Shown here piece after piece: positions 3,298-34,260 of a stretch of 64,000 nucleotides of DNA (positions are counted from its first letter, which is position 1; the number at the start of each line of letters is the position of its first letter). The notes under the pieces were generated by a model that saw only the letters and a list, made by a program, of their open reading frames with translations, did not search any database and was not told the origin of the DNA. The DNA is from Streptomyces sp. Je 1-369. Lineage in GTDB: Bacteria; Actinomycetota; Actinomycetes; Streptomycetales; Streptomycetaceae. The stretch covers positions 3,873,254 through 3,937,253 of the forward strand of contig NZ_CP101750.1 in the NCBI RefSeq assembly GCF_026810505.1, read 5' to 3'. Both the position numbers and the translations under genes were made by a program.

Positions 3298-3312
3298 CTG
3301 ACTAACCGTCAG
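3298..3312. promoter_or_regulatory. operator-like palindrome, site A
   Basis: CTGACTAACCGTCAG: both 5-base half-sites are perfect. It lies 22 bp from the acyl-CoA ligase start on the minus strand and in the 5' region of the thiolase operon. It belongs to the repeated motif described in the findings. Confidence 0.7.
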
Positions 3313-3324
3313 ATTAGCTGTAGC

Positions 3325-3339
3325 CTGACGCGCTGTCAG
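3325..3339. promoter_or_regulatory. operator-like palindrome, site B
   Basis: CTGACGCGCTGTCAG: perfect half-sites, centred 27 bp from site A. Two sites in one divergent promoter suggest that both transcription units are controlled together. Confidence 0.7.
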
Positions 3340-3380
3340 CAGTCATGACACGCTCGCGACCGGCGGAGGTGCCGTTGCCC

Positions 3381-4532
3381 ATGGCTTCACTCAAGGACGC
3401 CACAGCGATAGTCGGGATCGGCCAGACTCCGTTCGCGAAACAACTCCAAGCAAGCGAGAAGGAGTTGGCGTGCCGGGCGATCGTCGCCGCGCTCGACGAC
3501 GCCGGCATCGCGCCGTCCGAGGTCGACGCCTTCGCCTCGTACACGATGGAGGAGACCGACGAGGTCGAGGTCGCCAAGGCCGTCGGCGCGGGCGACGTCA
3601 CCTTCTTCAGCAAGGTCGGCTACGGCGGCGGCGGTTCCTGCGCCACGGTCGCCCACCTCGCCTCCGCCATCGCCACCGGGCAGGCGAGCGTCGGCATCGC
3701 CTGGCGCTCCCGCAAACGCGGCAGCGGCCCCCGCCCCTGGAAGAACACGGCGGTCCAACTCCCCACGCCCGCCCAGTGGACGCGCCCCTTCGGCCTGCTC
3801 CGCCCCGCCGACGAGATCGCGATGCTCGCCCGCCGCCACATGCACGAGTACGGCACGACCCGCGACCACCTCTTCAACGTCGCCCTCGCCTGCCGCAACC
3901 GGGCCAACCAGAACCCGGCCGCGATGATGTACGAGCGGCCACTGACCCGCGACATGTATATGACGTCGCGCTGGATCAGCGAACCGCTCTGTCTCTTCGA
4001 CAACTGCCTGGAGACGGACGGCGCACTGGCCTGCGTGATCGTCTCCGCGGAACGGGCGCGCGACGGCCGACAGAAGCCGGTGTACGTCCACTCCGTCGCG
4101 CAGGGCCTGCCCGCCCAGCACCACGGCATGGTCAACTACTGGACCGACGACCCGCTCTCGGGCCCGGCCTGGACGGCCGCCCGACACCTGTGGAAACAGG
4201 CGGACTTCGGCCCGCAGGACGTGGACGTCGCCCAGATCTACGACGCGTTCACCCCGCTCATCCCGCTCTCCCTGGAGGGTTACGGCTTCTGCGACCGCGG
4301 TGAGGGCGGCGCGTTCACGGAGGGCGGCGCCCTGGAGAGCGGCGGCCGCCTCCCCATCAACACGGGCGGCGGCGGCCTCAGCGAGGCGTACGTCCACGGC
4401 TTCAACCTCATCAACGAGGGCGTGAAGCAACTGCGGGGCACGAGCACGGCGCAGGTGCCGGATGCGACGACGTGCCTGGTGACGGCGGGAGAGGGCGTCC
4501 CCACCTCGGCGCTGCTCCTGAGGGCCCCGTAG
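3381..4532 (+). CDS. thiolase-like lipid-transfer protein (Ltp), 383 aa
   Basis: A thiolase-superfamily protein of the SCP-x/Ltp type. Visible landmarks are KDATAIVGIGQTPF at the start, GGGGSCATVAHLASAIATG (a cysteine where thiolases carry the nucleophile), HMHEYGTTRDH, DVAQIYDAFTPLIPLSLEGY and GEGGAFTEGGALESGG. In steroid side-chain catabolism such proteins pair with DUF35 partners as acyl-CoA retro-aldolases. The DUF35 gene directly downstream (4602) fits that arrangement. ATG at 3381 has GGAGGT about 11 bases upstream and homology starts there; the longer ATG at 3345 overlaps the operator area. First gene of a three-gene operon. Confidence 0.85.
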   Translation: MASLKDATAIVGIGQTPFAKQLQASEKELACRAIVAALDDAGIAPSEVDAFASYTMEETDEVEVAKAVGAGDVTFFSKVGYGGGGSCATVAHLASAIATGQASVGIAWRSRKRGSGPRPWKNTAVQLPTPAQWTRPFGLLRPADEIAMLARRHMHEYGTTRDHLFNVALACRNRANQNPAAMMYERPLTRDMYMTSRWISEPLCLFDNCLETDGALACVIVSAERARDGRQKPVYVHSVAQGLPAQHHGMVNYWTDDPLSGPAWTAARHLWKQADFGPQDVDVAQIYDAFTPLIPLSLEGYGFCDRGEGGAFTEGGALESGGRLPINTGGGGLSEAYVHGFNLINEGVKQLRGTSTAQVPDATTCLVTAGEGVPTSALLLRAP

Positions 4533-4601
4533 GGGGCCTTTCAGGGGCGCGGGGAACTGCGCGACCAGCCACGACGGACCGCACCCGGGAGAGAAGAGAC
4601 C

Positions 4602-5057
4602 ATGGCAGACGCGACGGCAAAGACGGACCCCCTCCTGACGCCCACGCAGGACGAGGACGGCGCCCCCTTCTGGACCTACGCCGCCCGAGGCGAGCTACGG
4701 ATACAGGCCTGCACCGCCTGCGACAAACTCCGCTTCCCCCCACGCCCCTGCTGCCCTGACTGCCAGTCCTTCGACAGCACCTGGCGCAGGATGAGCGGAA
4801 AGGGCCGCATCTGGTCGTACGTCTTCCCCCACCCCCCGCTCCTCCCTGCCTACGCCGAACACGCCCCGTACAACGCGATCATCGTCGAGCTCGCCGACGC
4901 CCCGCGCATCCGCCTCGTCGGCAACCTCGTCGCCGCGCCGGACGCCCCCCTGAACTCGATCGCCCCGGAACGCCTCCGCATCGGCGCGAAGGTGCAGGTC
5001 GTCTTCGCGGACGTCGGCGGGACCGTGGTCCCGCGCTGGGTCCTGGAGCGCCCGTGA
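4602..5057 (+). CDS. DUF35 zinc-ribbon/OB-fold protein, Ltp partner, 151 aa
   Basis: A rubredoxin-like zinc ribbon (CTACDKLRFPPRPCCPDC, residues about 36-53) is followed by an OB-fold (DUF35) with GKGRIWSYVF and GAKVQVVFADVGG. Family members act as small subunits for thiolase-like aldolases or acyl-CoA hydratases and are thought to hold the CoA part. The position 69 bp behind the Ltp gene and the GTGA overlap with the crotonase gene make a complex with its neighbours likely. Confidence 0.85.
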   Translation: MADATAKTDPLLTPTQDEDGAPFWTYAARGELRIQACTACDKLRFPPRPCCPDCQSFDSTWRRMSGKGRIWSYVFPHPPLLPAYAEHAPYNAIIVELADAPRIRLVGNLVAAPDAPLNSIAPERLRIGAKVQVVFADVGGTVVPRWVLERP

Positions 5058-5842: not shown

Positions 5843-5877
5843 GGGAGCCGGGGCAGGCGGGACTTCCGACACAGGCC

Positions 5878-8271
<2,394 letters not shown>

Positions 8272-9476: not shown

Positions 9477-9491
9477 CTGACGGCATGACAG
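9477..9491. promoter_or_regulatory. near-match operator over the TetR start codon
   Basis: CTGACGGCATGACAG differs from CTGAC-N5-GTCAG at one half-site base and covers the ATG of the TetR gene (9485). TAAGCT at 9473-9478 could be the -10 box of a leaderless transcript. This would suit autorepression, but one site with a mismatch may be chance. Confidence 0.35.
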
Positions 9492-10132
9492 GACAGGTAC
9501 GTACCGTCGACGGCCGCGTGGCCGGTCGGCGCGGTCAGGCGACGCGTCAGAAGCTGCTCGACTGCCTCAGCGAGATGCTCAGCTCCTCGCCCTACCGGGA
9601 CGTCAAAGTCATCGACGTCGCCCGGAAGGCGGGGACTTCACCAGCGACCTTCTACCAGTACTTCCCGGATGTCGAAGGCGCCGTCCTGGAGATCGCGGAG
9701 CAAATGGCCGCGGAGGGCGCCGAGTTGACCCAGCTCCTCGACGGGCGCTCCTGGGTCGGCAAGGCGGGCTGGCAGACCTCCCAGGACCTGGTCGAGGGCT
9801 TCCTCGACTTCTGGCGCAAGAACGACGCGATCCTCCGCGTCGTCGATCTGGGCGCCGCCGAAGGCGACAAGCGCTTCTACAAAATCAGGATGAAGATCCT
9901 CAACTCGGTCAACAACTCCCTTACGGACACCGTCAAGGAACTCCAGGCCAAGGGCAAGGTCGACAAGGACATCAGCCCCACGGCGATGGCGGGCTCCCTG
10001 GTCGCGATGCTCGCGGCGGTCGCCTCCCACCAGCGGGGCTTCCAGACGTGGGGCGTGAAGCAGGCCGAACTCAAGCCCAACCTGGCGATGTTGGTACATC
10101 TGGGCGTAACGGGTAAGAAGCCCACAAAGTAG
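9485..10132 (+). CDS. TetR-family transcriptional regulator, 215 aa
   Basis: N-terminal helix-turn-helix (residues about 17-65) with GQATRQKLLDCLSEML, VIDVARKAGTSPATFYQYF and the following helix start PDVEGAVLEIAEQM. The C-terminal ligand domain is helical (KNDAILRVVDLGAAEGDKRF). No Shine-Dalgarno is visible, so the mRNA may be leaderless. It is the only TetR gene inside the catabolic region, and a near-copy of the shared palindrome covers its start. It is the best candidate for the repressor of that regulon; this is inference. A hairpin terminator follows at 10175. Confidence 0.85.
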   Translation: MTGQVRTVDGRVAGRRGQATRQKLLDCLSEMLSSSPYRDVKVIDVARKAGTSPATFYQYFPDVEGAVLEIAEQMAAEGAELTQLLDGRSWVGKAGWQTSQDLVEGFLDFWRKNDAILRVVDLGAAEGDKRFYKIRMKILNSVNNSLTDTVKELQAKGKVDKDISPTAMAGSLVAMLAAVASHQRGFQTWGVKQAELKPNLAMLVHLGVTGKKPTK

Positions 10133-10224: not shown

Positions 10225-10704
10225 TCAACCCCGGCGTTCCAGCCGGAACAGCCGTATCTCCCGCTCCACCCGCGCCTGGTACGCGGCGTACGGCGGCCAG
10301 AACCTCAGCGCCGCCGCCCAGACCTCGGCCCGCTCCTCCCCCGACAGGAGCCGCGCCCGCACCGGGATGTCGGTGCCCCGCCAGTTCACCTCGACTTCGG
10401 GGTCGGCCAGCAGATTGACGGTCCACGCGGGATGCCCGGGCCGCCCGAAGTTCGACCCGACGAGCACCCAGCTCCGCCCGCCCTCCTCCGGCATGCAGGC
10501 CAGCGGCGTCCGCCTCGGCACCCCGCTCTTCGCGCCGCGCGCGGTCAGGATGACGCCGGGCAGCATTCGCGCGCTCGGCAGCACCTTGCCCCGGGTCAGC
10601 CGGTGCACGGTCCGGTCCATGGCGGGGATGAAGTGCGGCGCGACCTTGGCGAAGGCGCGGGTGGACGACACCTTCTGCACGAGCCGCAGCCCGGCCCCCG
10701 CCAT
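10225..10704 (-). CDS. DDN-family F420-dependent nitroreductase/quinone reductase-like protein, 159 aa
   Basis: A small split-barrel flavin-type protein. The segments LTARGAKSGVPRRTPLAC, SWVLVGSNFGRPGHPAW and ADPEVEVNWRGTDIPVRA follow the deazaflavin-dependent nitroreductase (Ddn/Rv3547) family, which binds F420 and reduces quinones or enones. Its start ATG shares one base with the stop of the acyl-CoA dehydrogenase gene (TGATG), so it is translationally coupled. It may reduce a double bond in the same pathway; the partner substrate is unknown. Confidence 0.8.
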   Translation of the reverse strand: MAGAGLRLVQKVSSTRAFAKVAPHFIPAMDRTVHRLTRGKVLPSARMLPGVILTARGAKSGVPRRTPLACMPEEGGRSWVLVGSNFGRPGHPAWTVNLLADPEVEVNWRGTDIPVRARLLSGEERAEVWAAALRFWPPYAAYQARVEREIRLFRLERRG

Positions 10705-11975
10705 CAGACGGCCTCCTCAGCTTCGGCTTCGGCTTCGGCTTCGGCTTCGGCTTCGGCTTCGGCTTCGGCTTCGGCTTCGGCGGACTCGAAGAGACCGGCC
10801 CGCTCCGCCGCCCGAGCCCGCAGCCGGTGCACGGGACCGAAGAGGAGGTCGTCGCCGGACGCCCGCTTGAAGTACAGGTGCGCCTCGTGCTCCCAGGTGA
10901 AGCCGATGCCGCCGTGCAGCTGCACCGCTTCGGACGCGGCGGTCCGCAGCGCGTCGAGCGCCTGCGCCAGCGCCAGCCCGCCCGCCCGCTCGGCGCCCTG
11001 TCCGCCGAACCCGGCGGCCTCGGCGCCCGCGGCCCACGCCGCGTAGTAGGCGGCCGACCGCGCCGCCTGCACCTGTACGTACACGTCGGCGAGCCGGTGC
11101 TTGACCGCCTGGAAGGACCCGATCGTGCGCCCGAACTGCTCGCGCTGCTGCACGTACTCGACAGTGCGCTCCAGAGCGCGTTCGGCCGCCCCGACGGCCT
11201 CCGCGGCGACGACGGTGGCCGCGACGTCCCCCACGGCGGCGAGCGCGCCCGGCACGTCCGCGTCGTCGGCACCCAGCAACTCCGCCTCGACATCGCGCAG
11301 TTCGACGCGAGCCTGCGTACGGGTCTCGTCGAGGCAGGTCTGCCGGGCCCGCACCATGCCCGGCGCGCCTTCCCGTACGAGGAAGAGGAGCGTACGGGAC
11401 CGGGCGAACCCGCCCGCGTGCGCGGCGACGACGAGCAGCCCCGCGCTGTGCCCGTCGATGACCTGCTCGGCCTGCCCGTACAGCCGCCACGTCCCGTCGA
11501 CCGGCCGCGCCTGCACGCCGCCCGCCCGGCCGCCGCCCGCCCAGTCGCCGCGGTTGTCGCCGACGAGCCCGAGGGCCGTGGCGAGCCCGGTGCCGGGGAC
11601 GGCGAGGGCGGCACTCAGCTCACCGGCGGCGATGCGCGGCAGGTGGGCGGCGCGCTGCTCGGCGGTGCCGAGGGCGAGGATCAGCGGGGCGGCGAGTACG
11701 GCGGTGGCGAGGAGCGGTGTCGGCGCGAGGGCGCGTCCCAGTTCCTCGACGCCGAGGGCGAGCTCCGCGACCGTGCAGCCCACGCCGCCGCAGGCCTCGG
11801 GCAGAGCGAGGCCGGGCAGCCCGAGCTGTTCGGCGAGCGCGGTCCACAGGGCGGTGTCGTGGCCGTCCGGCGTGCGCACGGCCGCCTTGACCTCGTCGGG
11901 CCCGCACCGTTTGGAGATCACTTCGCGAAGGGTGCGGCGGATCTCGCCCTGCTCCGCGCTGAAGGCGGCGTCCAT
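10704..11975 (-). CDS. acyl-CoA dehydrogenase with Ala-Glu repeat tail, 423 aa
   Basis: ACAD fold: N-terminal helical domain (MDAAFSAEQGEIRRTLREVI), middle strand domain with ALAVPGTGLAT, and C-terminal domain with QQREQFGRTIGSFQAVKHRL and QLHGGIGFTWEHEAHLYFKR. The ending matches FadE-type subunits used on CoA esters of rings and branched chains. The last 28 or so residues are an (Ala-Glu)n run encoded by ten copies of a 6-bp unit. ATG at 11975 has GGGGAGGAG just upstream; a longer frame begins at 12005. Operator site C lies 50 bp upstream. Divergent from the second Ltp gene. Confidence 0.85.
   Translation of the reverse strand: MDAAFSAEQGEIRRTLREVISKRCGPDEVKAAVRTPDGHDTALWTALAEQLGLPGLALPEACGGVGCTVAELALGVEELGRALAPTPLLATAVLAAPLILALGTAEQRAAHLPRIAAGELSAALAVPGTGLATALGLVGDNRGDWAGGGRAGGVQARPVDGTWRLYGQAEQVIDGHSAGLLVVAAHAGGFARSRTLLFLVREGAPGMVRARQTCLDETRTQARVELRDVEAELLGADDADVPGALAAVGDVAATVVAAEAVGAAERALERTVEYVQQREQFGRTIGSFQAVKHRLADVYVQVQAARSAAYYAAWAAGAEAAGFGGQGAERAGGLALAQALDALRTAASEAVQLHGGIGFTWEHEAHLYFKRASGDDLLFGPVHRLRARAAERAGLFESAEAEAEAEAEAEAEAEAEAEAEEAV
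10721..10780. repeat. hexanucleotide microsatellite, 10 x CTTCGG, in coding sequence
   Basis: Ten exact tandem copies of CTTCGG. On the minus strand they encode alternating Ala and Glu at the C-terminus of the acyl-CoA dehydrogenase. A six-base unit changes the protein by two residues per copy without shifting frame, so the tail length could vary between strains. Confidence 0.95.
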
Positions 11976-12024
11976 CGGCAGGCTCCTCCCCGAGGCCCCG
12001 GGCACGGCGGCCCGGGTGCCAGAT

Positions 12025-12108: not shown

Positions 12109-12123
12109 CTGATGTACCGTCAG
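12109..12123. promoter_or_regulatory. operator-like palindrome, site D
   Basis: CTGATGTACCGTCAG: one mismatch. It ends 4 bp before the Ltp start at 12128. TACCGT inside it is spaced like the -10 box of a leaderless mRNA, so bound protein would block the promoter directly. Confidence 0.65.
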
Positions 12124-15598: not shown

Positions 15599-16475
15599 AG
15601 TCCCACTGGGCGAAGTCCACGACCGGCCGGTACCCGAGACGCTGGTAGAGGCGGTTGCTCGTCGGGTTGGCCAGGTCCGTGAAGAGCAGGACCTCCGCCG
15701 CGCCCGCGTCGAGCGCGGCACGGGTGACCGCCGCGGTGGCGGCGCCTCCGTATCCGCGGCCACGCAGGTCGGCGGGGGTGTAGACGGGGGCGACGCGGAC
15801 CTGGTCCGCGATGCGGTGGGTGGCGCCGGCCATGGCGGCCGGCGTGCCGTCGGGGGTTTCCCAGAGGGTGACGCCGCCGTAGGCGATACGGGAGTCCGCC
15901 CACGCGTGCGGATCCATCGCGGGGCGTTCGTGGGCGGCCCGGCCGAACTCCTCGTACCAGCGCGCCAGCAGGTCCCGGTCCGCCGCGGTGGCCACGCGGG
16001 CACGGCCGGACGGTGCGGGGTCGGGCGGGGTGAGGGCGTCGAGCCGGTACAGGCGCTGGCGCATGCCGAGGGCGACGGAGGCCCCGGTGTGCTTCTCCCA
16101 GGCCCGGGCGAACGTCTCCGCTGTGGCGCGGTCGGCGGCGACGCCTGGCAGGTCCGGGCCGACCTCGGCGAGCTGCCGGGCGAGGGCTTCGGCGGCCTCG
16201 GGGGCGACGGGGCCGAGGGCGACGCGGTGCGGGGGCGTCCGGAGGAAGGCGCCGCGGACGGTGCCGTCGGAGTCGGCGTACGTACCGAAGAGGGGTTCCC
16301 CGTCGCCGTACGCCCGAAGCCCACGCTGCCGGAGGGTCTCCGTGACGCTGAGCAGGACGGTGTGCACGGCGGGCTCGGAGTGCAGGAACTCCTCGGCCCG
16401 GGCGAGGAACCCGTCGAGGTCGGTGGTCAGCCGCCAGTCGGCGGATTCCGTTGTCTCCATCGTCTCTATGCGCAT
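15576..16475 (-). CDS. GNAT-family N-acetyltransferase, 299 aa
   Basis: The C-terminal half is a GNAT domain: RVAPVYTPADLRGRGYGGAA contains the acetyl-CoA pyrophosphate loop R-G-x-G-x-G, followed by LLFTDLANPTSNRLYQRLGY, the usual end. The N-terminal half (LDGFLARAEEFLHSEPAVHT) is the weaker domain often found before it in actinobacterial members. The substrate is unknown. The start overlaps the end of the DUF35 gene upstream by 10 bp, so both sit in one transcript. Confidence 0.85.
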   Translation of the reverse strand: MRIETMETTESADWRLTTDLDGFLARAEEFLHSEPAVHTVLLSVTETLRQRGLRAYGDGEPLFGTYADSDGTVRGAFLRTPPHRVALGPVAPEAAEALARQLAEVGPDLPGVAADRATAETFARAWEKHTGASVALGMRQRLYRLDALTPPDPAPSGRARVATAADRDLLARWYEEFGRAAHERPAMDPHAWADSRIAYGGVTLWETPDGTPAAMAGATHRIADQVRVAPVYTPADLRGRGYGGAATAAVTRAALDAGAAEVLLFTDLANPTSNRLYQRLGYRPVVDFAQWDFTATATP

Positions 16476-16945
16476 GCACCAGTATCCGCAGGCCGGAACA
16501 GCGCGACCGCCACCCCTTCCACCCCTTCCGCCGCTTCACGGAACGTCACGCACACGGGCATCCCGATCCGCAGCTCCCCGTGCTCGCAGTCGACGACCTC
16601 CGTCATCATGCGGGGGCCCTCGGCGAGATCGACGACCGCGGCGACGTAGGGGACGCGGCTGCCGAACGGTGGGAGGTCGTTGCGGTGCACGACCGACCAC
16701 GTATAGAGCGTGGCGCGGCCGCTCGCCTCCTCCCAGGAGACGTCCTCGCTCCAGCAGCGCGGGCAGAACTCGCGCGGGTAGTGGTGCGCCGCCCCGCACG
16801 CCCCGCAGCGGCGAACCAGCAAACGCCCCTCGGCGGCCGCGTCCCAGTAGGGCCGGGTGAAGGCGTCGACCTCAGGAAGATCGAAGCGCGGCTCGACGCT
16901 CGGCTCCGTACTCAGCTTCTCCGTACTCAGCTTCTCCGTGCCCAT
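16466..16945 (-). CDS. DUF35 zinc-ribbon/OB-fold protein, second copy, 159 aa
   Basis: Zinc ribbon CGACGAAHHYPREFCPRC at about residues 47-64, then an OB-fold with GRATLYTWSVVHRND and PYVAAVVDLAEGP. It is the likely partner of the Ltp at 12128. The N-terminus carries a small duplication (TEKLSTEKLSTE) from a 15-bp direct repeat at about 16912-16941. Operator site E lies 80 bp upstream. First gene of a unit with the GNAT gene. Confidence 0.85.
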   Translation of the reverse strand: MGTEKLSTEKLSTEPSVEPRFDLPEVDAFTRPYWDAAAEGRLLVRRCGACGAAHHYPREFCPRCWSEDVSWEEASGRATLYTWSVVHRNDLPPFGSRVPYVAAVVDLAEGPRMMTEVVDCEHGELRIGMPVCVTFREAAEGVEGVAVALFRPADTGACA

Positions 16946-18412: not shown

Positions 18413-18427
18413 CTGACTGTGTGTCAG
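18413..18427. promoter_or_regulatory. operator-like palindrome, site G
   Basis: CTGACTGTGTGTCAG: perfect half-sites, centred 24 bp after site F. Two more GTCAGGTAAG-like half-sites follow near 18424 and 18453. Confidence 0.7.
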
Positions 18428-18491: not shown

Positions 18492-20717
18492 ATGCTTGGA
18501 TCTACTCACGGCACCTTCACCACCGACCCCCGCCGCGCCCATGTCGTGGCCTGCGGCGAACTCCCTCCCCACGCCGTCCACGGCAGAGCCGTCACGGCGG
18601 ACGACCTGGACGTCAGCGGCCGACCGCTGTACGCCGGCGTACCCGACCTCGACCGCTTCTTCCGCCCCGCCTCCGTCGCCGTCGTCGGCGCGTCGGACGC
18701 CGAGGGGCGCCCCAACACCGGCATCACCCGGCAGCTCATCGCCTGGGCCGAACGCGTCGGCGCGCGCCTGCACCCCGTGCACCCCACCCGTCAGTCGGTC
18801 TTCGGCATCCCCTGCTTCCCTTCCGTCGCGGACCTGCCCGAACAGGTCGACCTGGCCGTACTCCTGGTCGGCGACCCGCTGCCCGTCATCGAGCGGCTCG
18901 CCGAGGAGAAGGTGCGGTTCGCCGTCGCCTTCGCCTCCGGGTTCGCCGAGACCGGCGAGGAGGGCGCGGCCGCCCAGGCGCGGCTCACGGCCGCCGTCCA
19001 GCGCTCCGGCCTCAGGCTGCTCGGCCCCAACACCAACCTCAACGCCTTCGAGGAGTTCCGCGAGGACCTCGAAGGACCCGCCATCGCGCTGATCACCCAG
19101 TCCGGCCACCAGGGGCGCCCCCTCTTCACGATGCAGGAACTCGGCGTACGCCTCTCGCACTGGGCGCCCACCGGCAACGAAGCCGACCTGGAGACCTCCG
19201 ACTTCATCTCCTACTTCGCCGAGCGCCCCGAGGTCGGCGCCATCGCCTGCTACGTCGAGGGCCTCAAGGACGGCCGCGCCTTCCTGCTCGCCGCCGACCG
19301 GGCGGCCCGGCGCGGGGTGCCCGTCGTCGCCGTGAAGGTCGGCCGCACCGAGACCGGCGCCCGCACGGCCGCCTCACACACCGGCAAGCTGACCGGCGCC
19401 GACACGGTGGTGGACGCGGCGATGCGGCAGTTCGGCGTGATCCGCGTCGACGGGCTCGACGAGCTCCAGGACACCTCCGCGCTCCTCGCGCGGGCGCGGA
19501 AGCCGATGGCGGACGGCGTCGTCGTGTATTCGATCTCGGGCGGCACGGGCGCGCACTTCGCGGACCTGGCGACCGAGGCCGGGCTCGCCCTGCCCACGCT
19601 CTCCGCCGACCGGCAGGCGGAGCTGCACCAGTGGATACCCGAGTACCTGAACGTCGCCAACCCCGTCGACAACGGCGGGCATCCCGTCGGCGACTGGCGC
19701 GGCCGGAAGATCATCGACGCGATCCTGGACGACCCGGAGGTGGGGGTGCTGATCTGCCCCATCACCGGACCGTTCCCTCCCATGAGCGACAAGCTCGCGC
19801 AGGACCTGGTGGACGCGGCGGAGCAGACGGACAAACTGGTGTGCGTGGTGTGGGGCTCGCCGGTCGGCACGGAGGAGGCCTACCGCACGACGCTCCTCGG
19901 CTCCTCGCGCGTCGCGACGTTCCGCACCTTCGCCAACTGCATCACGGCGGTACGCGCCTATCTGGACCACCACCGCTTCACGGCCCACTACCGCTCGCCC
20001 TTCGACGAGGCGCCGCGCACCCCCTCCCCGTCCTTCCGCAAGGCTCAGGCCCTGATGCGGCCGGGCCAGCAGCTCAGCGAGCACGCGGCGAAGCAGCTGC
20101 TGCGCGCGTACGGGATCAGGGTGCCGCGCGAGCAGCTGGTGACCAGCGCGGCGGCGGCCGTCAGGGCGGCCGGGCTCGTCGGCTACCCGGTCGTCATGAA
20201 GGCCTCGGGGGCGCGGCTCGCGCACAAGACCGAGCTGGGCCTGGTGAAGATCGGCCTGACCTCGGCGAGCCAGGTGCGGGACGCCTACCGGGAGCTCACG
20301 GACATCGCCCGCTACGAGGGCGTCGAGCTCGACGGCATCCTGGTCTGCCAGATGGTCGAGCGGGGCGTCGAGATGGTCGTCGGCGTCGCGCACGACCCGC
20401 TGTTCGGGCCGACGGTGACGGTGGGGCTCGGCGGTGTCCTCGTGGAGGTGCTGCGGGACGCGGCCGTGCGGGTGCCGCCCTTCGGGGAGGACCAGGCGAA
20501 GGCGATGCTGTCGGAGCTGCGCGGGCGTGCGCTGCTCGACGGGGTCAGGGGCGCGGCGCCCGCCGACGTCGACGCGCTCGTCGAGGTCGTGCTGCGGGTG
20601 CAGCGCATGGCCCTGGAACTCGGCGACGACCTCGCGGAGCTGGACATCAACCCGCTGATGGTGCTGCCGCGGGGGCAGGGAGCGGTGGCACTCGACGCAC
20701 TGGCCGTCTGCCGCTAG
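18492..20717 (+). CDS. NDP-forming acyl-CoA synthetase (ACS/ATP-grasp fusion), 741 aa
   Basis: Three modules: a CoA-binding Rossmann domain (about residues 55-150, FFRPASVAVVGASDAEGRPN), a succinyl-CoA-ligase-like middle with the phosphohistidine motif AASHTGKLTG, and a C-terminal ATP-grasp (about 515-735, SEHAAKQLLRAYGIRVP, GYPVVMKASGARLAHKTELG, LDINPLMVLP). It interconverts acyl-CoA and acid with ADP/ATP. In a degradation regulon it may activate a substrate or salvage an acyl-CoA product. AGGAG lies 11 bases before the ATG. Sites F and G lie upstream. The crotonase gene follows after 157 bp and may be in the same unit. Confidence 0.88.
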   Translation: MLGSTHGTFTTDPRRAHVVACGELPPHAVHGRAVTADDLDVSGRPLYAGVPDLDRFFRPASVAVVGASDAEGRPNTGITRQLIAWAERVGARLHPVHPTRQSVFGIPCFPSVADLPEQVDLAVLLVGDPLPVIERLAEEKVRFAVAFASGFAETGEEGAAAQARLTAAVQRSGLRLLGPNTNLNAFEEFREDLEGPAIALITQSGHQGRPLFTMQELGVRLSHWAPTGNEADLETSDFISYFAERPEVGAIACYVEGLKDGRAFLLAADRAARRGVPVVAVKVGRTETGARTAASHTGKLTGADTVVDAAMRQFGVIRVDGLDELQDTSALLARARKPMADGVVVYSISGGTGAHFADLATEAGLALPTLSADRQAELHQWIPEYLNVANPVDNGGHPVGDWRGRKIIDAILDDPEVGVLICPITGPFPPMSDKLAQDLVDAAEQTDKLVCVVWGSPVGTEEAYRTTLLGSSRVATFRTFANCITAVRAYLDHHRFTAHYRSPFDEAPRTPSPSFRKAQALMRPGQQLSEHAAKQLLRAYGIRVPREQLVTSAAAAVRAAGLVGYPVVMKASGARLAHKTELGLVKIGLTSASQVRDAYRELTDIARYEGVELDGILVCQMVERGVEMVVGVAHDPLFGPTVTVGLGGVLVEVLRDAAVRVPPFGEDQAKAMLSELRGRALLDGVRGAAPADVDALVEVVLRVQRMALELGDDLAELDINPLMVLPRGQGAVALDALAVCR

Positions 20718-21846: not shown

Positions 21847-21861
21847 CTGACGGCCCGTCAG
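21847..21861. promoter_or_regulatory. operator-like palindrome, site H
   Basis: CTGACGGCCCGTCAG: perfect half-sites and the most symmetrical copy. It ends 5 bp before the ATG of the flavin reductase at 21867, again with no room for a ribosome-binding site. Confidence 0.7.
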
Positions 21862-21866: not shown

Positions 21867-22493
21867 ATGGGTGGCGTGATGGGACACGCAGGGATGGCGG
21901 CCACCGCTGTTCGATACCTCAGGTCGGTCGGGGCCCGCACCACCACGGCGCCCGTCGAGGTGCTACCGCGCCCTCAGCTGCGGGCGGTCGGCGACGACGA
22001 GCGCGCGCCGCTCGACCGGGGCGAGTTCCGGCGTGTGCTGGGGAACTTCGCGACGGGCGTCACCGTCATCACGTCGCCGCCCGACGAGGACGGCGGGCCC
22101 GCGGGCTTCGCCTGCCAGTCGTTCGCCTCGCTCTCCCTGGACCCGCCCCTCGTGTCGTTCATGGTGGCGCGTACGTCGACGACGTGGCCGCGCATCGCGC
22201 GCGCCGGTGTCTTCTGCGTCAACATCCTGGGCGCCGACCAGGGCGACCTGTGCCGCGGCTTCGCGGTGAGCGGCGCCGACAAGTTCGCCGGGGTGGTGTA
22301 CGACGCGGCGCCGGTCTCCGGATCGCCGCGCCTCGCCGGGGCGCCCGCCTGGGTCGACTGCACGATCCAGGCCGTGCACACCGGCGGCGACCACCTCATC
22401 GTCGTCGGCCGGGTGGACGCCCTCGGCGCGACCGCGGACGACGCCGACCCGCTCCTGTTCCACCGGGGAACGTTCGGCCGCTTCACCCGCTGA
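21867..22493 (+). CDS. flavin reductase (HsaB/HpaC-like), 208 aa
   Basis: FMN-binding split barrel of the flavin-reductase family: FRRVLGNFATGVTVITSPP, GFACQSFASLSLDPPLVSFM, FCVNILGADQGDLCRGFAVS and the C-terminal VDALGATADDADPLLFHRGT with FGRF. These enzymes supply reduced flavin to two-component monooxygenases such as HsaA. No oxygenase of that type is in the window, so the partner must lie elsewhere. The first 35 or so residues are unusual for the family, so an internal start is possible, but the operator touching ATG 21867 supports a leaderless mRNA from there. Confidence 0.85.
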   Translation: MGGVMGHAGMAATAVRYLRSVGARTTTAPVEVLPRPQLRAVGDDERAPLDRGEFRRVLGNFATGVTVITSPPDEDGGPAGFACQSFASLSLDPPLVSFMVARTSTTWPRIARAGVFCVNILGADQGDLCRGFAVSGADKFAGVVYDAAPVSGSPRLAGAPAWVDCTIQAVHTGGDHLIVVGRVDALGATADDADPLLFHRGTFGRFTR

Positions 22494-27333: not shown

Positions 27334-28662
27334 TCACCGAGGCCCCCTGGCCTCTCTCGGCAGACCGAGCACCCGCTCGGCGATGATGTTCCGCTGCACT
27401 TCGTCCGATCCGCCGTAGACGGTGTCGGCACGGCTGAACAGGAACAGCCGTTGCAGAGCGTCGAGTTCGTACGGAGCGTCCGCGCGCCAGTCCCCCGGCC
27501 CCACCGCCGCCGACGGCCCCCGTACGGCCATCGCCAGCTCCCCGAGCCGCTGATGCCACCGCCCCCACAGCAACTTGGCCACACTGGGCGCACCGACGGC
27601 CGCGCCGCCTCCGACCCCGACCCCAGCCTCGGCCGCCCCGGCACTCCCCAACGTCCGCAGCGCGTTCCACCGCATCACCCGCAGCTCCGCCCACTGCCGC
27701 ACCAACCGCTCCCGCACCACCGGGTCGTCGACCGCCCCGCCCGCCACGGCCTCCCGTACGACCGCCGCCAGCTCCTCCGCGAAGCCGATCTGCTGCACCA
27801 GCGTGGACACGCCCCGCTCGAAGCCGAGGAGCCCCATGGCGACCCGCCACCCGTTGCCGACGCCGCCCACCACATGGGCCGCACGCGCGCGTGCACCGTC
27901 GAAGAAGACCTCGTTGAACTCACTGGTCCCGGTCAGCTGCCGGATGGGCCGGACCTCGATCCGCCCGGGCTGGTCCATGGGCACGAGCAGAAACGACAGC
28001 CCTTCGTGAGGCCGCGCCCCACCTCCACCCCCGTTCCCGTCTCCCCCTGAACCCCCCGAACCCCCTGCCCCCTCCGTCCGCGCCAGCACGAAGCACCAGT
28101 CCGCCTCATGCGCCAGCGACGTCCAGATCTTCTGCCCGGTCACCCGGAAGTCGCCCGCCCCGTCCCGCTCCGCCCGCGTCCGCACGCCCGCGAGATCGGA
28201 CCCGGCGCCGGGCTCGCTGTACCCCTGGCACCACAGCGCCTCGCCCCGCGCGATCGGCGGCAGGAACTCGTCCCGCTGCTCCTGGCTCCCGTACGCGAGG
28301 AGCGTCGGCGCGAGCAGGTTCTCGCCGATGTGCCCGTACCGCCCGGGCGCCCGCACGCGCGCGTACTCCTCGGCCCAGACCACCTGCTGGGTCAGCGTGG
28401 CCCGCCGATTCCCGTACACGCCCACACCCGCACCCGACTCCGTACCGGAGCCCGCACCCGAGCCCCCGTCCCACCCGAGCCCGATCCATCCCCCGCTGCC
28501 CAACTCCCTTTCCCACGCCCGACGCTGAGCGCCTCCCTCGTGCTCGCTCCCCGGCCCGCCCCGCCCCACCGCGGCGGCGAACTCCCCGGTGAGGTGCTCC
28601 GCGAGCCACGCCCGCGCCTCCGCCCGGAACGCCTCGTCCGCGGCCCCGAACCCAAACTCCAT
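27334..28662 (-). CDS. acyl-CoA dehydrogenase with Gly/Ser-rich insertions, 442 aa
   Basis: ACAD with GEALWCQGYSEPGAGSDLAG, KIWTSLAHEADWCFVLART, RQLTGTSEFNEVFFDG, SRADTVYGGSDEVQRNIIAE. The segment around SEPGAGSDLA is the flavin/substrate loop. Two inserts stand out: GGSGAGSGTESGAGVGVY at about residue 66 and a Gly-rich run at about residue 196. They lengthen the protein by about 40 residues against the usual 380-400. Followed at 10 bp by the zinc alcohol dehydrogenase and preceded by the SDR gene on the same strand. Confidence 0.87.
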   Translation of the reverse strand: MEFGFGAADEAFRAEARAWLAEHLTGEFAAAVGRGGPGSEHEGGAQRRAWERELGSGGWIGLGWDGGSGAGSGTESGAGVGVYGNRRATLTQQVVWAEEYARVRAPGRYGHIGENLLAPTLLAYGSQEQRDEFLPPIARGEALWCQGYSEPGAGSDLAGVRTRAERDGAGDFRVTGQKIWTSLAHEADWCFVLARTEGAGGSGGSGGDGNGGGGGARPHEGLSFLLVPMDQPGRIEVRPIRQLTGTSEFNEVFFDGARARAAHVVGGVGNGWRVAMGLLGFERGVSTLVQQIGFAEELAAVVREAVAGGAVDDPVVRERLVRQWAELRVMRWNALRTLGSAGAAEAGVGVGGGAAVGAPSVAKLLWGRWHQRLGELAMAVRGPSAAVGPGDWRADAPYELDALQRLFLFSRADTVYGGSDEVQRNIIAERVLGLPREARGPR

Positions 28663-28716: not shown

Positions 28717-29628
28717 CTACGCGTTCGGCCGCTCCTTGCCCGCCGCCGCCTTCGCCATCGCCTCCAGCTGCGCCAGCAACGGCATCGGGTCGGTGCCGAC
28801 CGTCCCGGGCAGGAAGTCCGCGATCTTCTCGGGGGTCCAGGCCCCGTCGGCGTACCCCGCGCGCAGCTCGCGCGGCTGTGCCCAGACGGCGATCTTGGGG
28901 CCCGCGATCGTGTAGACCTGGCCGGTGATCCTCTCCTCGCGGGCCCGGTCGCTCAGCAGATAGACGACGAGCGCGGCGACGTCCTCCGGCTCACCGATCT
29001 CCTTCAGCTCCATGGGAACGTTCGCCGACATCCGCGTACGGGCGACGGGCGCCACCGCGTTCGCGGTCACCCCGTACTTGTGCAGCCCCAGCGCCGCGCT
29101 CCGCACCAGCGAGATGATGCCGCCCTTCGCGGCGCTGTAGTTGGCCTGCGCGACCGAGCCCTGGTGGTTGCCGCTGGTGAAGCCGACCAACGTGCCCGAG
29201 CCCTGCTTCCGCATCACCGCGGACGCCGCGCGGAACACCGTGAACGTGCCCTTGAGGTGTGTGGCGACGACCGGGTCCCACTCCTCCTCGGACATGTTGA
29301 ACAGCATCCGTTCGCGCAGGATCCCGGCGACGCACACCACTCCGTCCACCCGCCCGTACTCGGCGAGTGCGACGTCGACGACGCGCTGGCCGCCCGCCAT
29401 GGTCGAGATGTCGTCCGCGACGGCGACGGCCTCGCCGCCCGCGGCCCGGATCTCCTTGACCACGGCGTCCGCTATCTCGCTGGCCGGCTCGGCGCCCTCC
29501 ATGGAGACGCCGTAGTCGTTGACGACGACTTTCGCCCCCTCGGTCGCCGCGGCGAGGGCGACGGCCCTGCCGATGCCGCGTCCGGCGCCGGTCACGGCGA
29601 CCACCTTGCCTGCCAAGAAGTTCCCCAC
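28717..29628 (-). CDS. short-chain dehydrogenase/reductase (3-hydroxyacyl-CoA or hydroxysteroid type), 303 aa
   Basis: NAD-binding TGAGRGIGRAV (residue about 14), GRVDGVVCVAGI, active-site Ser in LVGFTSGNHQG and YSAAKGG (Tyr-x3-Lys). The extended N-terminal half VNDYGVSMEGAEPASEIADA is typical of the hydroxyacyl-CoA dehydrogenase unit of peroxisomal MFE-2 and of actinobacterial 17-beta-HSD-like proteins. It would oxidise a 3-hydroxyacyl-CoA in beta-oxidation. GTG start at 29628; operator site I is 22 bp upstream. Confidence 0.85.
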   Translation of the reverse strand: MGNFLAGKVVAVTGAGRGIGRAVALAAATEGAKVVVNDYGVSMEGAEPASEIADAVVKEIRAAGGEAVAVADDISTMAGGQRVVDVALAEYGRVDGVVCVAGILRERMLFNMSEEEWDPVVATHLKGTFTVFRAASAVMRKQGSGTLVGFTSGNHQGSVAQANYSAAKGGIISLVRSAALGLHKYGVTANAVAPVARTRMSANVPMELKEIGEPEDVAALVVYLLSDRAREERITGQVYTIAGPKIAVWAQPRELRAGYADGAWTPEKIADFLPGTVGTDPMPLLAQLEAMAKAAAGKERPNA

Positions 29629-29650
29629 GCCCGGCCCCTTCCCGAGGTTT

Positions 29651-29665
29651 CTGACGGACCGTTAG
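29651..29665. promoter_or_regulatory. operator-like palindrome, site I
   Basis: CTGACGGACCGTTAG: one mismatch. It lies between the divergent SDR and cyclase genes. A further GTCAG half-site lies at 29678-29682. Confidence 0.65.
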
Positions 29666-29717
29666 ATTCTATGACCCGTCAGACACCCGAAGACAAGCCC
29701 CGCGGAGGACCCAGACC

Positions 29718-30668
29718 ATGCCAGTCCCCAGCGCCAAGCCCCCGCCCCTCCCTCCCGTGTTCCACGACATCGCCAAACGCGTGTCGAACTGGGGCCGTTG
29801 GGGCGCCGATGACGAGATCGGGACGCTCAACCTCATCACCGACGACGTCGTACGCGCCGCATCCGCCGAGGTCCGCACCGGCCGCCGCATCCCGCTCGCG
29901 CTCCCACTGAAGGAGGACGGCGTACAGACGGGACTGATCCCCGGGCGCGTGAATCCCCTGCACACCATGGTGCAGATCAACCAGGAGCTCTTCGGGCCCG
30001 GCACGGTCGCCACCAGCGACGACGCCGTGACGATGGGGCTCCAGACGGCGACCCACTGGGACGCCCTCACCCACGCCTCACACTCGGGAAAGATCTACAA
30101 CGGCCGCCCCGCGGACAGCATCACGGCCCACGCGGGCGCCCGCTACAGCGGCATCGACAAGGCCCGGCACGTCGTCTCGCGCGGCGTCCTCCTGGACGTG
30201 GCCCGCGCCAAGGGGCTCGACCGGCTGTCCGGCGACCACGCCGTCACGCCCGAAGACCTCGACGAAGCCGCGGAGTTCGGGCGTGTCACGGTCCGCGCGG
30301 GCGACATCGTGCTCGTACGCACGGGGCAGATGCAGGTCTATCTCGCGGGTGACAAACACGCGTACGGCTATCCGTCGCCCGGCCTCTCGGTGCGTACGCC
30401 CGAGTGGTTCCACGCGCGGGACGTCGCGGCGGTCGCGAACGACACCCTGACCTTCGAGATCTTCCCGCCGGAGATCGAGAACCTGTGGCTGCCCGTGCAC
30501 GCGCTCCACCTCGTCGAGATGGGCATGATCCAGGGCCAGAACTGGAATCTGGAAAACTTGTCCACAGCCTGTGCAGAACTTTCCCGCTACACGTTCCTGC
30601 TGTGCGCGATGCCGGAGCCGTTCACGGGCGGAACGGGCACTCCGGTGGCGCCGGTCGCGATTCTCTGA
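29718..30668 (+). CDS. cyclase family protein (kynurenine-formamidase-like hydrolase), 316 aa
   Basis: Metal-dependent hydrolase of the cyclase superfamily: SNWGRWGADDEIGTLNLITD, TATHWDALTHASHSGKIYNG (the His-x-Asp-x3-His metal motif), SRGVLLDVARAKG and HALHLVEMGM. Relatives open lactam or ring amide bonds, and some open cyclic ketones. Because it shares operator site I with the SDR and lies among acyl-CoA genes, a ring-opening role in the pathway is a reasonable guess. GAGGACC lies before the ATG. Confidence 0.82.
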   Translation: MPVPSAKPPPLPPVFHDIAKRVSNWGRWGADDEIGTLNLITDDVVRAASAEVRTGRRIPLALPLKEDGVQTGLIPGRVNPLHTMVQINQELFGPGTVATSDDAVTMGLQTATHWDALTHASHSGKIYNGRPADSITAHAGARYSGIDKARHVVSRGVLLDVARAKGLDRLSGDHAVTPEDLDEAAEFGRVTVRAGDIVLVRTGQMQVYLAGDKHAYGYPSPGLSVRTPEWFHARDVAAVANDTLTFEIFPPEIENLWLPVHALHLVEMGMIQGQNWNLENLSTACAELSRYTFLLCAMPEPFTGGTGTPVAPVAIL

Positions 30669-32972: not shown

Positions 32973-32980
32973 ACCGACCC

Positions 32981-34123
32981 TCACCGTCCCTTCGGGAGGC
33001 CCAGGATGCGCTCGGCCACGATGTTCTCCTGGATCTGCGAGGTGCCCGCGGCGATCGTGTACGACAGCGAGGAGAGGCGGTCGAGGGTCCACTCGTGGGC
33101 GAGGTCGAGTGCGCCCGCGCCGAGCACCTCGGCGGCGGCGTCGTACAGCTCCTGCCGCGCGTGCGAGTAGCTCAGCTTGAAGACCGAGCCGCCCACGCCG
33201 GGGACCCCGCCGGTGCGCTGCGCCTCGCTCACGTTCCACTGCGTGAGCCGCCACAGCGCGGCGAACTCGGCGCTCAGCCGCCCGAGCCTGCGCCGCAGCG
33301 CCGGGTCGCCCCAGCGGCCGTTCCCGCGGGCCTCGCGGGCCAGCTCGCCGAGGACGCGCCGGCAGGCCACCACCTCCCCCACGAAGGCGGTGCCCCGCTC
33401 GTACGACAGGGTCACCATCGTCACGCGCCAGCCGTCGTTCTCCTCGCCGACCCGGTTCGCCACCGGGACGCGCACGTCGTCGAGGAACATCTCGGCGAAC
33501 TCCGTGGACCCCGCGAGCGTGCGCAGCGGCCGCACGGTGATGCCGGGGGCGTCCATCGGCATGGCGAGCCAGGTGATGCCCCGGTGCTTCGGTACGGCCT
33601 CGCTGACCGGTGTCGTCCGCACCAGGAGCTCGCACCAGTCGGCGACCTCCGCGTGGGAGGTCCAGATCTTGGAGCCGCTCACCACGTAGTGGTCGCCGTC
33701 CCGCCACGCGCGCGTGCGCAGCGACGCGAGGTCGGATCCGGCGTCGGGCTCGCTGAAGCCCTGGCACCACACCTCGTCGCCGCGCAGAACGGGCGCGAGC
33801 CAGCGGTCCCGCTGTTCCGGTGTGCCTTCGGAGGCGATGGTCGGGCCCGCGTGGAGCAGGCCCACGAAATTGGCCCCTACGTAGGGGGCGCCCGCCTTTT
33901 CCGTCTCCTCCAGGAAAATGAGGCGCTGCGTGGGGGATGCGTCCCAGTGCACCTCTCCGTAGCCCGCGTCGTACAGCAGGCGCTGCCACGCGGTGTCGTA
34001 GGCGCGCCGTCCCGGCCAGTCCTGGGGGGAGGGCTTGGCGGGGAGCTTGGGCAGCACGAGGGAGAGCCAGTCGCGCAGCCCGGCCCGGAAGGCCTCCTCC
34101 TCGTCGGTGTACGTGAGGTCCAT
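32981..34123 (-). CDS. acyl-CoA dehydrogenase, 380 aa
   Basis: Full-length ACAD: MDLTYTDEEEAFRAGLRDWL, GDEVWCQGFSEPDAGSDLAS, SKIWTSHAEVADWCELLVRT, RTLAGSTEFAEMFLDDVRVP and IAAGTSQIQENIVAERILGL. The C-terminal AAGTSQIQ block carries the FAD-contact region. GGAGG precedes ATG 34123; upstream codons of the open frame are spurious. It nearly abuts the short ACAD gene, suggesting an alpha-beta enzyme. Operator site J is 44 bp upstream. Confidence 0.88.
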   Translation of the reverse strand: MDLTYTDEEEAFRAGLRDWLSLVLPKLPAKPSPQDWPGRRAYDTAWQRLLYDAGYGEVHWDASPTQRLIFLEETEKAGAPYVGANFVGLLHAGPTIASEGTPEQRDRWLAPVLRGDEVWCQGFSEPDAGSDLASLRTRAWRDGDHYVVSGSKIWTSHAEVADWCELLVRTTPVSEAVPKHRGITWLAMPMDAPGITVRPLRTLAGSTEFAEMFLDDVRVPVANRVGEENDGWRVTMVTLSYERGTAFVGEVVACRRVLGELAREARGNGRWGDPALRRRLGRLSAEFAALWRLTQWNVSEAQRTGGVPGVGGSVFKLSYSHARQELYDAAAEVLGAGALDLAHEWTLDRLSSLSYTIAAGTSQIQENIVAERILGLPKGR

Positions 34124-34167
34124 GCGGTGCGTACCTCCGGCCTCGGTCGTCACGACTGACGGCTGAA

Positions 34168-34182
34168 CTGATGGTTCGTCAG
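34168..34182. promoter_or_regulatory. operator-like palindrome, site J
   Basis: CTGATGGTTCGTCAG: one mismatch. An extra CTGACGG half-site lies just left at 34156. Upstream of the acyl-CoA dehydrogenase pair. Confidence 0.65.
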
Positions 34183-34245
34183 GCGGCAGGCTAGCCCCGC
34201 ACCCCTGGACCGACAAGGCGCCGGGGCTTACGCTCGCGGCACGAA

Positions 34246-34260
34246 CTGACGATGTGTCAG
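34246..34260. promoter_or_regulatory. operator-like palindrome, site K
   Basis: CTGACGATGTGTCAG: perfect half-sites, 31 bp before the acyl-CoA ligase start at 34292. Confidence 0.7.

What the first reader, a model, noticed from the sequence alone, without database searches (positions are those of the whole stretch)
3298..34260. Eleven copies of CTGAC-N5-GTCAG mark an undescribed catabolic regulon
The palindrome occurs at 3298, 3325, 12025, 12109, 17025, 18389, 18413, 21847, 29651, 34168 and 34246 (7 perfect half-site pairs, 4 with one mismatch). All lie between genes, in seven regions, and all seven flank acyl-CoA-type catabolic genes. None was seen at the unrelated interleaved genes (kinase, XRE/DUF397, EF-hand, sigma). 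A 10-base exact palindrome with a fixed spacer should be very rare by chance. The TetR at 9485 lies in the middle with a near-copy on its own start, so it is the likely repressor.
Basis: partly seen in the sequence, partly recalled or inferred. Interest (0 to 1): 0.87.

Follow-up and report, generated by a model that had tools for sequence, protein, structure and literature searches.

The report
Third sterol-type TetR regulon in Streptomyces
A repeated 15-letter DNA palindrome in a Streptomyces chromosome is very probably the binding site of a nearby, uncharacterised TetR repressor that controls a set of acyl-CoA and sterol-side-chain-type breakdown genes, partly on the same promoters as the known cholesterol regulator KstR.

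Summary
The window holds 7 perfect and 5 one-mismatch copies of CTGAC-N5-GTCAG (shuffles: 0.12 perfect, 2.9 with <=1 mismatch; no other spacer enriched). The genome has 34 perfect copies against 2 for the reversed pattern; 11 of the 34 lie in 67 kb around this cluster. In 80 Streptomyces loci the site recurs at operon heads (tetR 78 of 78 scored, ltp2-like 45 of 45, fadD3-like 43 of 44) and not at interleaved genes (kinase 0 of 70, nitroreductase 0 of 70). Of 19 non-Streptomyces tetR homologues read, 14 have a site within 300 bp of their start. The regulon reaches sterol-side-chain-type genes elsewhere: an igr-like operon (30 of 30 perfect) and CYP125-, FadE34- and Hsd4-like genes, several with a KstR-type box too. 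I conclude: a TetR/operator pair of which I saw no printed description, an extra layer on sterol/acyl-CoA catabolism. Binding, ligand and substrate are untested. One actinomycete order carries the palindrome chromosome-wide, unexplained.

The parts
3298..3312 (.). operator, perfect, fadD3-like/ltp2-like divergent promoter
   Evidence: conserved at fadD3-like 43/44 and ltp2-like 45/45 Streptomyces loci
3325..3339 (.). second operator, perfect, 27 bp from the first
1678..3285 (-). FadD3-family acyl-CoA ligase
   Evidence: NCBIfam NF005801 795.9 bits, cut-off 657
3345..4532 (+). Ltp2-type lipid-transfer thiolase/aldolase (start approximate)
   Evidence: NCBIfam NF005892 579 bits, cut-off 469
4602..5057 (+). 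DUF35 / ChsH2 C-terminal-type partner
   Evidence: PF01796 and PF12172
5054..5842 (+). enoyl-CoA hydratase
   Evidence: NCBIfam, EchA19-like, below cut-off
9477..9491 (.). operator (1 mismatch) over the tetR start codon, directly after a TAnnnT -10-like hexamer (TAAGCT)
   Evidence: sequence; at -8 in 80/80 loci and 26/27 further Streptomyces
9485..10132 (+). TetR-family regulator P0001, proposed repressor
   Evidence: PF00440 26.8 bits (cut-off 24), PF19352 TetR_C_38 241 bits
12025..12039 (.). operator, 1 mismatch, acyl-CoA dehydrogenase side
12109..12123 (.). operator, 1 mismatch, thiolase promoter
   Evidence: thiolase 72/72 loci with a site <=1 mismatch, 3 perfect
10704..12005 (-). acyl-CoA dehydrogenase, IpdE2-like (start approximate; ATG at 11975 likely)
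   Evidence: NF050027 207 bits, below cut-off 450; PF00441, PF02771
12128..13309 (+). thiolase-like lipid-transfer protein
   Evidence: NF004811 408 bits, just below cut-off 421; PF22691
17025..17039 (.). operator, perfect
   Evidence: flavin monooxygenase promoter 21/31 loci
16466..16945 (-). DUF35 / ChsH2 C-terminal-type protein (promoter site in 7/47 relatives only)
   Evidence: PF01796, PF12172
17176..18333 (+). FAD-dependent monooxygenase-like
   Evidence: PF13738, PF00743
18389..18403 (.). operator, perfect
   Evidence: acyl-CoA synthetase promoter 20/20 loci with a perfect site
18413..18427 (.). second operator, perfect, 24 bp from the first
18492..20717 (+). ADP-forming-type acyl-CoA synthetase
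   Evidence: PF13549, PF13607
20869..21732 (+). enoyl-CoA hydratase family protein
   Evidence: no model over cut-off
21847..21861 (.). operator, perfect
   Evidence: 1 of 1 scorable relative
21867..22493 (+). flavin reductase, HsaB-like
   Evidence: NF045630 190 bits, below cut-off 230
27334..28662 (-). acyl-CoA dehydrogenase
   Evidence: Pfam
28717..29628 (-). SDR oxidoreductase
29651..29665 (.). operator, 1 mismatch, SDR/cyclase divergent promoter (conservation not tested)
29718..30668 (+). cyclase-family protein
   Evidence: PF04199
34168..34182 (.). operator, 1 mismatch, acyl-CoA dehydrogenase side
   Evidence: 1 of 1 scorable relative
34246..34260 (.). operator, perfect, CoA-ligase side
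   Evidence: 1 of 1 scorable relative
32981..34123 (-). acyl-CoA dehydrogenase (start read as MDLTYTDEEEAF, approximate)
   Evidence: Pfam, translation
34292..35893 (+). acyl-CoA ligase (ATG at 34292 behind GGAGGGG, read from sequence)
   Evidence: PF00501, sequence

Best explanation
TetR 9485 (P0001) is the autoregulated repressor of this regulon. As a dimer it binds the dyad CTGACG-N3-CGTCAG (flanking A/T preferred), which lies over or just upstream of the start of its own gene and of each target operon; four of the window's promoter regions hold two operators 24-84 bp apart. It should come off when a pathway intermediate, most likely an acyl-CoA thioester of a sterol side-chain or similar polycyclic substrate, fills its C-terminal pocket. 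In Streptomyces the regulon joins the window's acyl-CoA genes to scattered sterol-side-chain-type genes (igr-like operon, CYP125-like, FadE34-like, Hsd4-like); several of these also carry a KstR-type box and so are probably under double TetR control. Shown in silico: enrichment, fixed spacer, conservation at operon heads, autoregulatory site, near-identical recognition helix, double sites. Inferred: binding, repression, ligand, substrate.
For: Enrichment and unique spacer (genome 34 vs 2). Site at -8 of tetR in 80/80 loci; 174 perfect sites in these loci against 0 for the reversed control, and 400 against 27 with <=1 mismatch. Operon heads yes, interleaved and intra-operon genes no. Of 25 non-Streptomyces genomes with a P0001 match I read the locus of 19; 14 have a site <=1 mismatch between -300 and +60 of the tetR start, where about 0.02 per locus would be expected from the shuffle rate; recognition stretch TSPATFYQYF or a one-letter variant. 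igr-like operon 30/30 perfect; in 10 of the 30 the site lies 17-270 bp from the ChsH2-like match instead of about 1.2-1.5 kb, so it appears to follow the operon head. CYP125-like promoter: CTGAC site and KstR-type box together in 21 of 21 readable loci. FadE34-like promoter: both in 3/3. In f14 (L159) the same TetR lies beside CoA-transferase, EchA20-like, IpdF-like and IpdE2-like genes with perfect sites in their divergent promoters; f12 (L161) is similar.
Against: No binding or expression data. The 80 footprint loci are close relatives (90-98% TetR identity). Site/TetR co-occurrence inside families f14 and f18 is confounded with genus, and four weak-homologue f18 genomes were left out of that count. 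TetR-positive genomes outside Streptomyces can have few sites (G011 7, G022 5, G031 6) and Streptomyces G277 has only 1. Homologues in f4 (L162), f22 (L163), a divergent f18 one (L170) and two f13 ones (L166, L167) have no site near the start, and one Streptomyces (L143) lacks it. Ring-A gene hsaC was not found with the indirect model TIGR03213 in this genome, so full sterol use is not shown. Streptomyces ipdA loci have no perfect site (0 of 30; 4 have a one-mismatch site). 17 of 61 Streptomyces lack an ipdA match yet hold 5-64 sites. At the igr-like loci the reversed pattern with <=1 mismatch also occurs somewhere in 12 of 30.
Confidence: 0.77

Rival explanations
1. Same repressor and operator, but the substrate is not a sterol: the window genes degrade some other cyclic or branched acid (terpenoid, cyclohexane-type, aromatic), and the sterol-type genes are secondary members.
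For: hsaC not found; the window ligase at 34292 is nearest the cyclohexanecarboxylate ligase model, below cut-off; luciferase-like and amidohydrolase genes have sites close by; sites persist in Streptomyces without an ipdA match.
Against: Perfect, conserved sites on the igr-like operon; KstR-type double sites at CYP125-like and FadE34-like promoters; the ipd-type cluster in f14 and f12.
Confidence: 0.35
2. A different regulator (KstR, the KstR2-like TetR beside the ipd genes, or the AraC-type at 23928) binds the palindrome.
For: KstR-type and KstR2-like genes are present in this genome, and KstR-type boxes lie next to several sites.
Against: No CTGAC site <=1 mismatch between 2725656 and 2738114, so none upstream of the KstR-type gene at 2728055, and no perfect one at ipdA; only one weak KstR-type box in the window, at 54694 outside the cluster; the site sits on tetR 9485 in 80/80 close relatives and near 14 of 19 distant homologues.
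Confidence: 0.08
3. The palindrome is a dispersed genome element (uptake, nucleoid or terminator signal), not an operator; the cluster is a local accumulation.
For: In order f13 it is chromosome-wide and largely genic or at convergent gene ends.
Against: In Streptomyces sites sit at operon heads and not at interleaved genes; 8 of the window's 12 sites are in divergent and 3 in tandem intergenic regions by my caller, 1 inside an over-extended start.
Confidence: 0.05

Closest known systems
KstR (sterol catabolism TetR)
   Same: Autoregulated TetR with a palindromic box at many scattered sterol genes; KstR-type boxes lie at the same promoters as CTGAC sites at the CYP125-like, FadE34-like, Hsd4-like and aldehyde-dehydrogenase genes.
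   Different: Different protein (a KstR-type gene lies at 2728055, NF033703 203 bits, below cut-off 280) and a different box (TNGAAC-N2-GTTCNA type, recalled consensus).
KstR2 (C/D-ring regulon: FadD3, Ipd)
   Same: In f14 and f12 the P0001-type TetR lies beside ipd-type genes, the place KstR2 has in mycobacteria (KstR2 placement recalled, KstR2 regulon mentioned in PMC4810484 passages); the window has a FadD3-family ligase.
   Different: A separate TetR that I recognise as KstR2-like sits beside the ipd-type genes in this Streptomyces (no NCBIfam model over cut-off); the recalled KstR2 consensus is unrelated.
KstR3 of Mycolicibacterium neoaurum (PMC10398937: outline with abstract, passages and section 6 read)
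   Same: TetR negative regulator of a small sterol side-chain operon with aldolase, DUF35-type protein and acyl-CoA dehydrogenase.
   Different: What I read gives neither its operator nor its sequence, so orthology could not be tested; only one of the f4 genomes in the 296-genome sample has a P0001 match at 1e-15 (f4 as Mycobacteriaceae is my guess).
EthR and other TetR repressors of solved structure
   Same: Nearest by HTH sequence and by fold (Foldseek E 1e-6, 16-18% identity; model mean pLDDT 71).
   Different: Sequence match confined to the HTH region for EthR; C-terminal family PF19352.
BkaR (PMC3920632, passages read)
   Same: Autoregulated TetR controlling acyl-CoA-type catabolism through a palindrome.
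   Different: Operator GTTA(N)T(N4)A(N)TAAC, unrelated to CTGAC-N5-GTCAG.

Membership tests
TetR-family regulator | TetR_N HTH domain with variable C-terminal domain | tested here: met
   PF00440 26.8 bits (cut-off 24), PF19352 241 bits; all-helical model
TetR-family regulator | Autoregulatory palindrome over its own promoter | tested here: met
   Site at -8 in 80/80 loci; in silico only
TetR-family regulator | Repression and ligand release | not testable with these tools
   Needs EMSA and a mutant
KstR regulon | Regulator matches the KstR model | tested here: not met
   P0001 does not list NF033703 at 1e-5; another gene, 2728055, does at 203 bits, below cut-off
KstR regulon | KstR-type box at targets (consensus recalled) | tested here: not met
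   For the window operons: one weak box in the window, at 54694 outside the cluster. Present beside CTGAC sites at some other targets
KstR2 regulon | Controls ipd genes in the same genome | tested here: not met
   0 of 30 Streptomyces ipdA loci have a perfect CTGAC site; 4 of 30 have a one-mismatch site
KstR2 regulon | KstR2 box at the window operons | not tested
   The recalled KstR2 box was scanned only in ipdA loci
KstR3 (M. neoaurum) | Orthologous protein sequence | not testable with these tools
   Sequence not in the text read
SlmA-type nucleoid factor (considered for f13) | Matches the SlmA model | tested here: not met
   P0001 30.8 bits vs cut-off 120; the f13 homologues themselves were not scanned

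The most novel reading that the evidence does not exclude
One TetR/operator pair leads two lives: in Streptomyces it is a regulon switch stacked on KstR promoters. In one small actinomycete order (f13) the same TetR family, with the same recognition stretch in the four of five genomes read, has become a chromosome-wide binder with 232-473 perfect sites per genome, sparse in divergent promoters and favoured at convergent gene ends: a metabolic repressor turned into a nucleoid or transcription-boundary factor.
Probability: 0.18. Interest if true: 0.85.

Novelty: new member of a known kind. Interest (0 to 1): 0.55.

Why it matters
It gives a testable regulator, operator and target list for acyl-CoA and sterol-type catabolism in Streptomyces. 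There, CYP125-, ChsH2- and IpdA-type matches turned out to be common: 45, 44 and 44 of 61 sampled species, whereas a 2016 survey reported the cholesterol pathway in 1 of more than 50 Streptomyces (PMC4810484, passages read); the full pathway was not shown here. Two different TetR boxes on one promoter, conserved across species, would be a clear case of layered TetR control. The f14/f12 arrangement suggests that regulators of steroid-type genes are swapped between lineages.

Tried and rejected
Rejected: a plain chance cluster; KstR as the binder. No Rfam family reached its gathering score in window 1-36000. For f13 an RNA hairpin is not supported: two-mismatch sites at mirrored positions keep pairing about as often as in the control (G012 22 of 45 vs 35 of 56; G085 22 of 44 vs 15 of 34; G053 5 of 13 vs 2 of 3), although T is somewhat raised in the 10 bases 3' of perfect sites (0.19 vs 0.145 background). 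f13 was not used as support for the regulon because its sites are not promoter-like.

Weak or failed steps: the FadE34-like search gave 3 of 61 genomes because the first look scored only 33 of many candidates per genome. The N-terminal text match failed in 9 of 30 CYP125-like loci, which were left out, and no control was run for the KstR-type box there. In one search the acad and adh queries were in a wrong frame and give no data; xre, sdr, cyclase and acad2 gave no scorable loci, and hsaB, acad3 and fadD_b one each. My gene caller is crude and over-extends starts; within the 67-kb cluster it also flags 3864893 and 3868354 inside ORFs. TIGR03213 is an indirect test for hsaC. The structure model is of middling confidence. 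Six of 25 non-Streptomyces genomes with a TetR match were not read (G069, G130, G140, G162, G181, G251). Other papers of which I saw passages (PMC4482099, PMC3511530, PMC11667970, PMC7324645) showed no match to the motif there; PMC7593942 and PMC8708139 (passages) mention kstR3 only in passing. Capped literature listings: one search showed 20 of 42, 65 12 of 21, 76 12 of 25, 77 12 of 16, 98 12 of 353.
Full report
OBSERVATION. With the copy at 9477 there are 12 sites with at most one mismatch, 7 perfect. 300 dinucleotide shuffles give on average 0.12 perfect sites and 2.93 with <=1 mismatch. N5 is the only enriched spacer: 7 against 0 or 1 for each other spacer from 0 to 20. At two mismatches there is no excess. 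The genome (8.82 Mb, one contig, window at 3873254-3937253) has 34 perfect sites, the reversed pattern 2. Eleven of the 34 lie in 3840785-3907513. With <=1 mismatch it is 324 against 167. The window's shuffle rate would give about 16 perfect hits per genome, so many of the 23 outside the cluster may be chance. My crude caller flags 11 of those 23 inside ORFs, including two over-extended starts (4352831, 2717642), and two of the 11 cluster sites (3864893, 3868354).

WHAT THE GENES ARE. Next to sites lie a FadD3-family ligase and an Ltp2-type thiolase (both over their NCBIfam cut-offs), DUF35/ChsH2-C proteins, an IpdE2-like dehydrogenase and an HsaB-like flavin reductase (both below cut-off), an ADP-forming-type acyl-CoA synthetase, SDR, cyclase, further acyl-CoA dehydrogenases and a CoA ligase. 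Just upstream of the window, perfect sites lie at luciferase-like, SDR and amidohydrolase genes. Elsewhere, perfect sites lie upstream of an igr-like operon (acyl-CoA dehydrogenase, MaoC-ChsH2-type fusion, dehydrogenase-MaoC; 4352831), a MaoC/ADH/SDR set (2705532), a fused FadE34-like dehydrogenase (2717642), an amidohydrolase (4755451) and a ligase/hydratase pair (8388630). One-mismatch sites head an aldehyde dehydrogenase (2738114) and a P450 with a CYP125-like N-terminus (2749372). No NCBIfam model names that P450 CYP125; the name is by recognition. A CYP125 of Streptomyces peucetius is reported to hydroxylate cholesterol (PMC9728343: start of abstract in the search listing, and one passage).

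WHO BINDS. The 9477 site covers the tetR start codon, ctgacggcATGacag, and overlaps TAAGCT, which fits a leaderless -10 box (sequence; my reading). It is at -8 in 80 of 80 loci and in 26 of 27 further Streptomyces. Of 25 non-Streptomyces genomes with a P0001 match at 1e-15 I read 19; 14 have a site <=1 mismatch between -300 and +60 of the start. The five without are f4 L162, f22 L163, the divergent f18 L170 and f13 L166 and L167. In f18 most of these sites lie 229-277 bp upstream, in f12 and f14 within 42 bp. The recognition stretch is TSPATFYQYF in most, with TSAATFYQYF (f18 G056) and TSSATFYQYF (f12) as one-letter variants that still have sites; L162, L163 and L170 have TSTATFYQYF, TSAATFYQYF and TSPGTFYHYF, so helix and site do not correlate strictly.

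FOOTPRINT. Among orthologous promoters (>=60% identity, promoter inside the locus; out of 80 loci), sites <=1 mismatch are at fadD3-like 43/44, ltp2-like 45/45, tetR 78/78, thiolase 72/72 (3 perfect), acyl-CoA synthetase 20/20, flavin monooxygenase 21/31, DUF35b 7/47, VOC 6/22 (at the distance of the tetR operator), and hsaB-like, acad3 and fadD_b 1/1 each. There are none at DUF35a 0/47, ech 0/51, kinase 0/70, nitroreductase 0/70, GNAT 0/10, echPaaG 0/2; acad, xre, sdr, cyclase, acad2 and adh had no scorable loci. The reversed control gives 0 except kinase 1 and synthetase 3. The igr-like operon has a perfect site in 30/30 loci, and in 10 of them the site lies next to the ChsH2-like match instead of more than 1 kb upstream. 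The CYP125-like promoter has a CTGAC site (2 perfect, 19 with one mismatch) and a KstR-type box (>=8 of 10) in 21 of 21 readable loci of 30; the reversed CTGAC control gives 0. The FadE34-like promoter has both in 3/3. In f14 a fused dehydrogenase (Pfam) also has a perfect site about 100 bp upstream, 7 kb from a KstR-type gene.

COMPARISON ACROSS GENOMES. P0001 matches occur in 53 of 296 actinomycetes, 28 of 28 Streptomyces. In f14, TetR-positive genomes have 10-24 perfect sites, negative ones 1-15 (p 0.018); in f18, 2.6 against 1.4 per Mb (p 0.0013). Four weak-homologue f18 genomes were dropped, and genus is a confounder. Some TetR-positive genomes have few sites (G011 7, G022 5, G031 6, Streptomyces G277 1). 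In Streptomyces, genomes with an ipdA match (44 of 61) have more sites per Mb, 4.7 against 3.3 (p 0.0006).

MECHANISM. Best reading: a ligand-released TetR repressor whose operators lie over start regions. In Streptomyces a KstR-type TetR, a KstR2-like TetR and P0001 coexist: KstR-type and CTGAC boxes share some promoters, the ipdA loci show no perfect CTGAC site and neither a KstR-type nor a KstR2 box as scanned, and the window cluster has CTGAC sites only. In f14 and f12 the P0001-type TetR sits at ipd-type genes. Binding, repression, ligand and substrate are inferred. hsaC was not found, so side-chain or partial degradation, or another polycyclic substrate, is possible.

NOVELTY. Ten searches of the open-access PMC library showed no printed description of this operator or regulator in what was listed (several listings capped, and most subscription journals are not held). 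KstR3 of M. neoaurum is the closest named relative in function, but its sequence and operator were not in what I read. I rate it a new member of a known kind.

UNEXPLAINED. Order f13 (5 genomes held) has 232-473 perfect sites per genome, control 2-7. A 620-kb sample of G012 has 32 perfect and 125 one-mismatch sites, control 0 and 12. In a 755-kb f13 sample it is the strongest perfect dyad, 58.7 times expectation against 8.3 for the next unrelated one, leaving out runs of N and overlapping registers of the same motif. Many sites are genic (82 of 157 well inside called ORFs in G012). Intergenic ones favour convergent over divergent regions (perfect, three genomes pooled: 15 vs 1 against a background of 58 vs 87, p 3e-5; larger G012 sample 20 vs 5 against 60 vs 66, p 0.004), and there is no compensatory pairing. 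All five genomes have a P0001 match; the two loci viewed show no steroid genes that I recognise.

Noticed in passing
G012, G035, G053, G069, G085 (f13); L165, L166, L192-L211, L254-L272, L344-L363: Chromosome-wide dispersal of CTGAC-N5-GTCAG (232-473 perfect per genome, control 2-7), often genic or at convergent gene ends and sparse in divergent promoters; these genomes encode the same TetR family.
   Followed up: partly
L153, L159, L160, L161 (f14, f12): The P0001-type TetR lies in or beside a cluster of CoA-transferase (Pfam-confirmed in L159 only), EchA20-like, IpdF-like and IpdE2-like genes, the place KstR2 has in mycobacteria (recalled).
   Followed up: partly
61 sampled Streptomyces; own genome near 2.70-2.75, 4.35 and 7.63 Mb: CYP125-like, ChsH2-like and IpdA-like matches occur in 45, 44 and 44 of 61 Streptomyces, far more than a 2016 survey suggested, yet hsaC was not found in this genome with TIGR03213.
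   Followed up: partly
window 10721-10780: About ten units of the six-base repeat cttcgg near the C-terminal end of the acyl-CoA dehydrogenase gene, seen in the sequence.
   Followed up: no
genome G338: Streptomyces G338 has 64 perfect sites in 7.3 Mb although no ipdA, ChsH2-like or CYP125-like match was found there.
   Followed up: no
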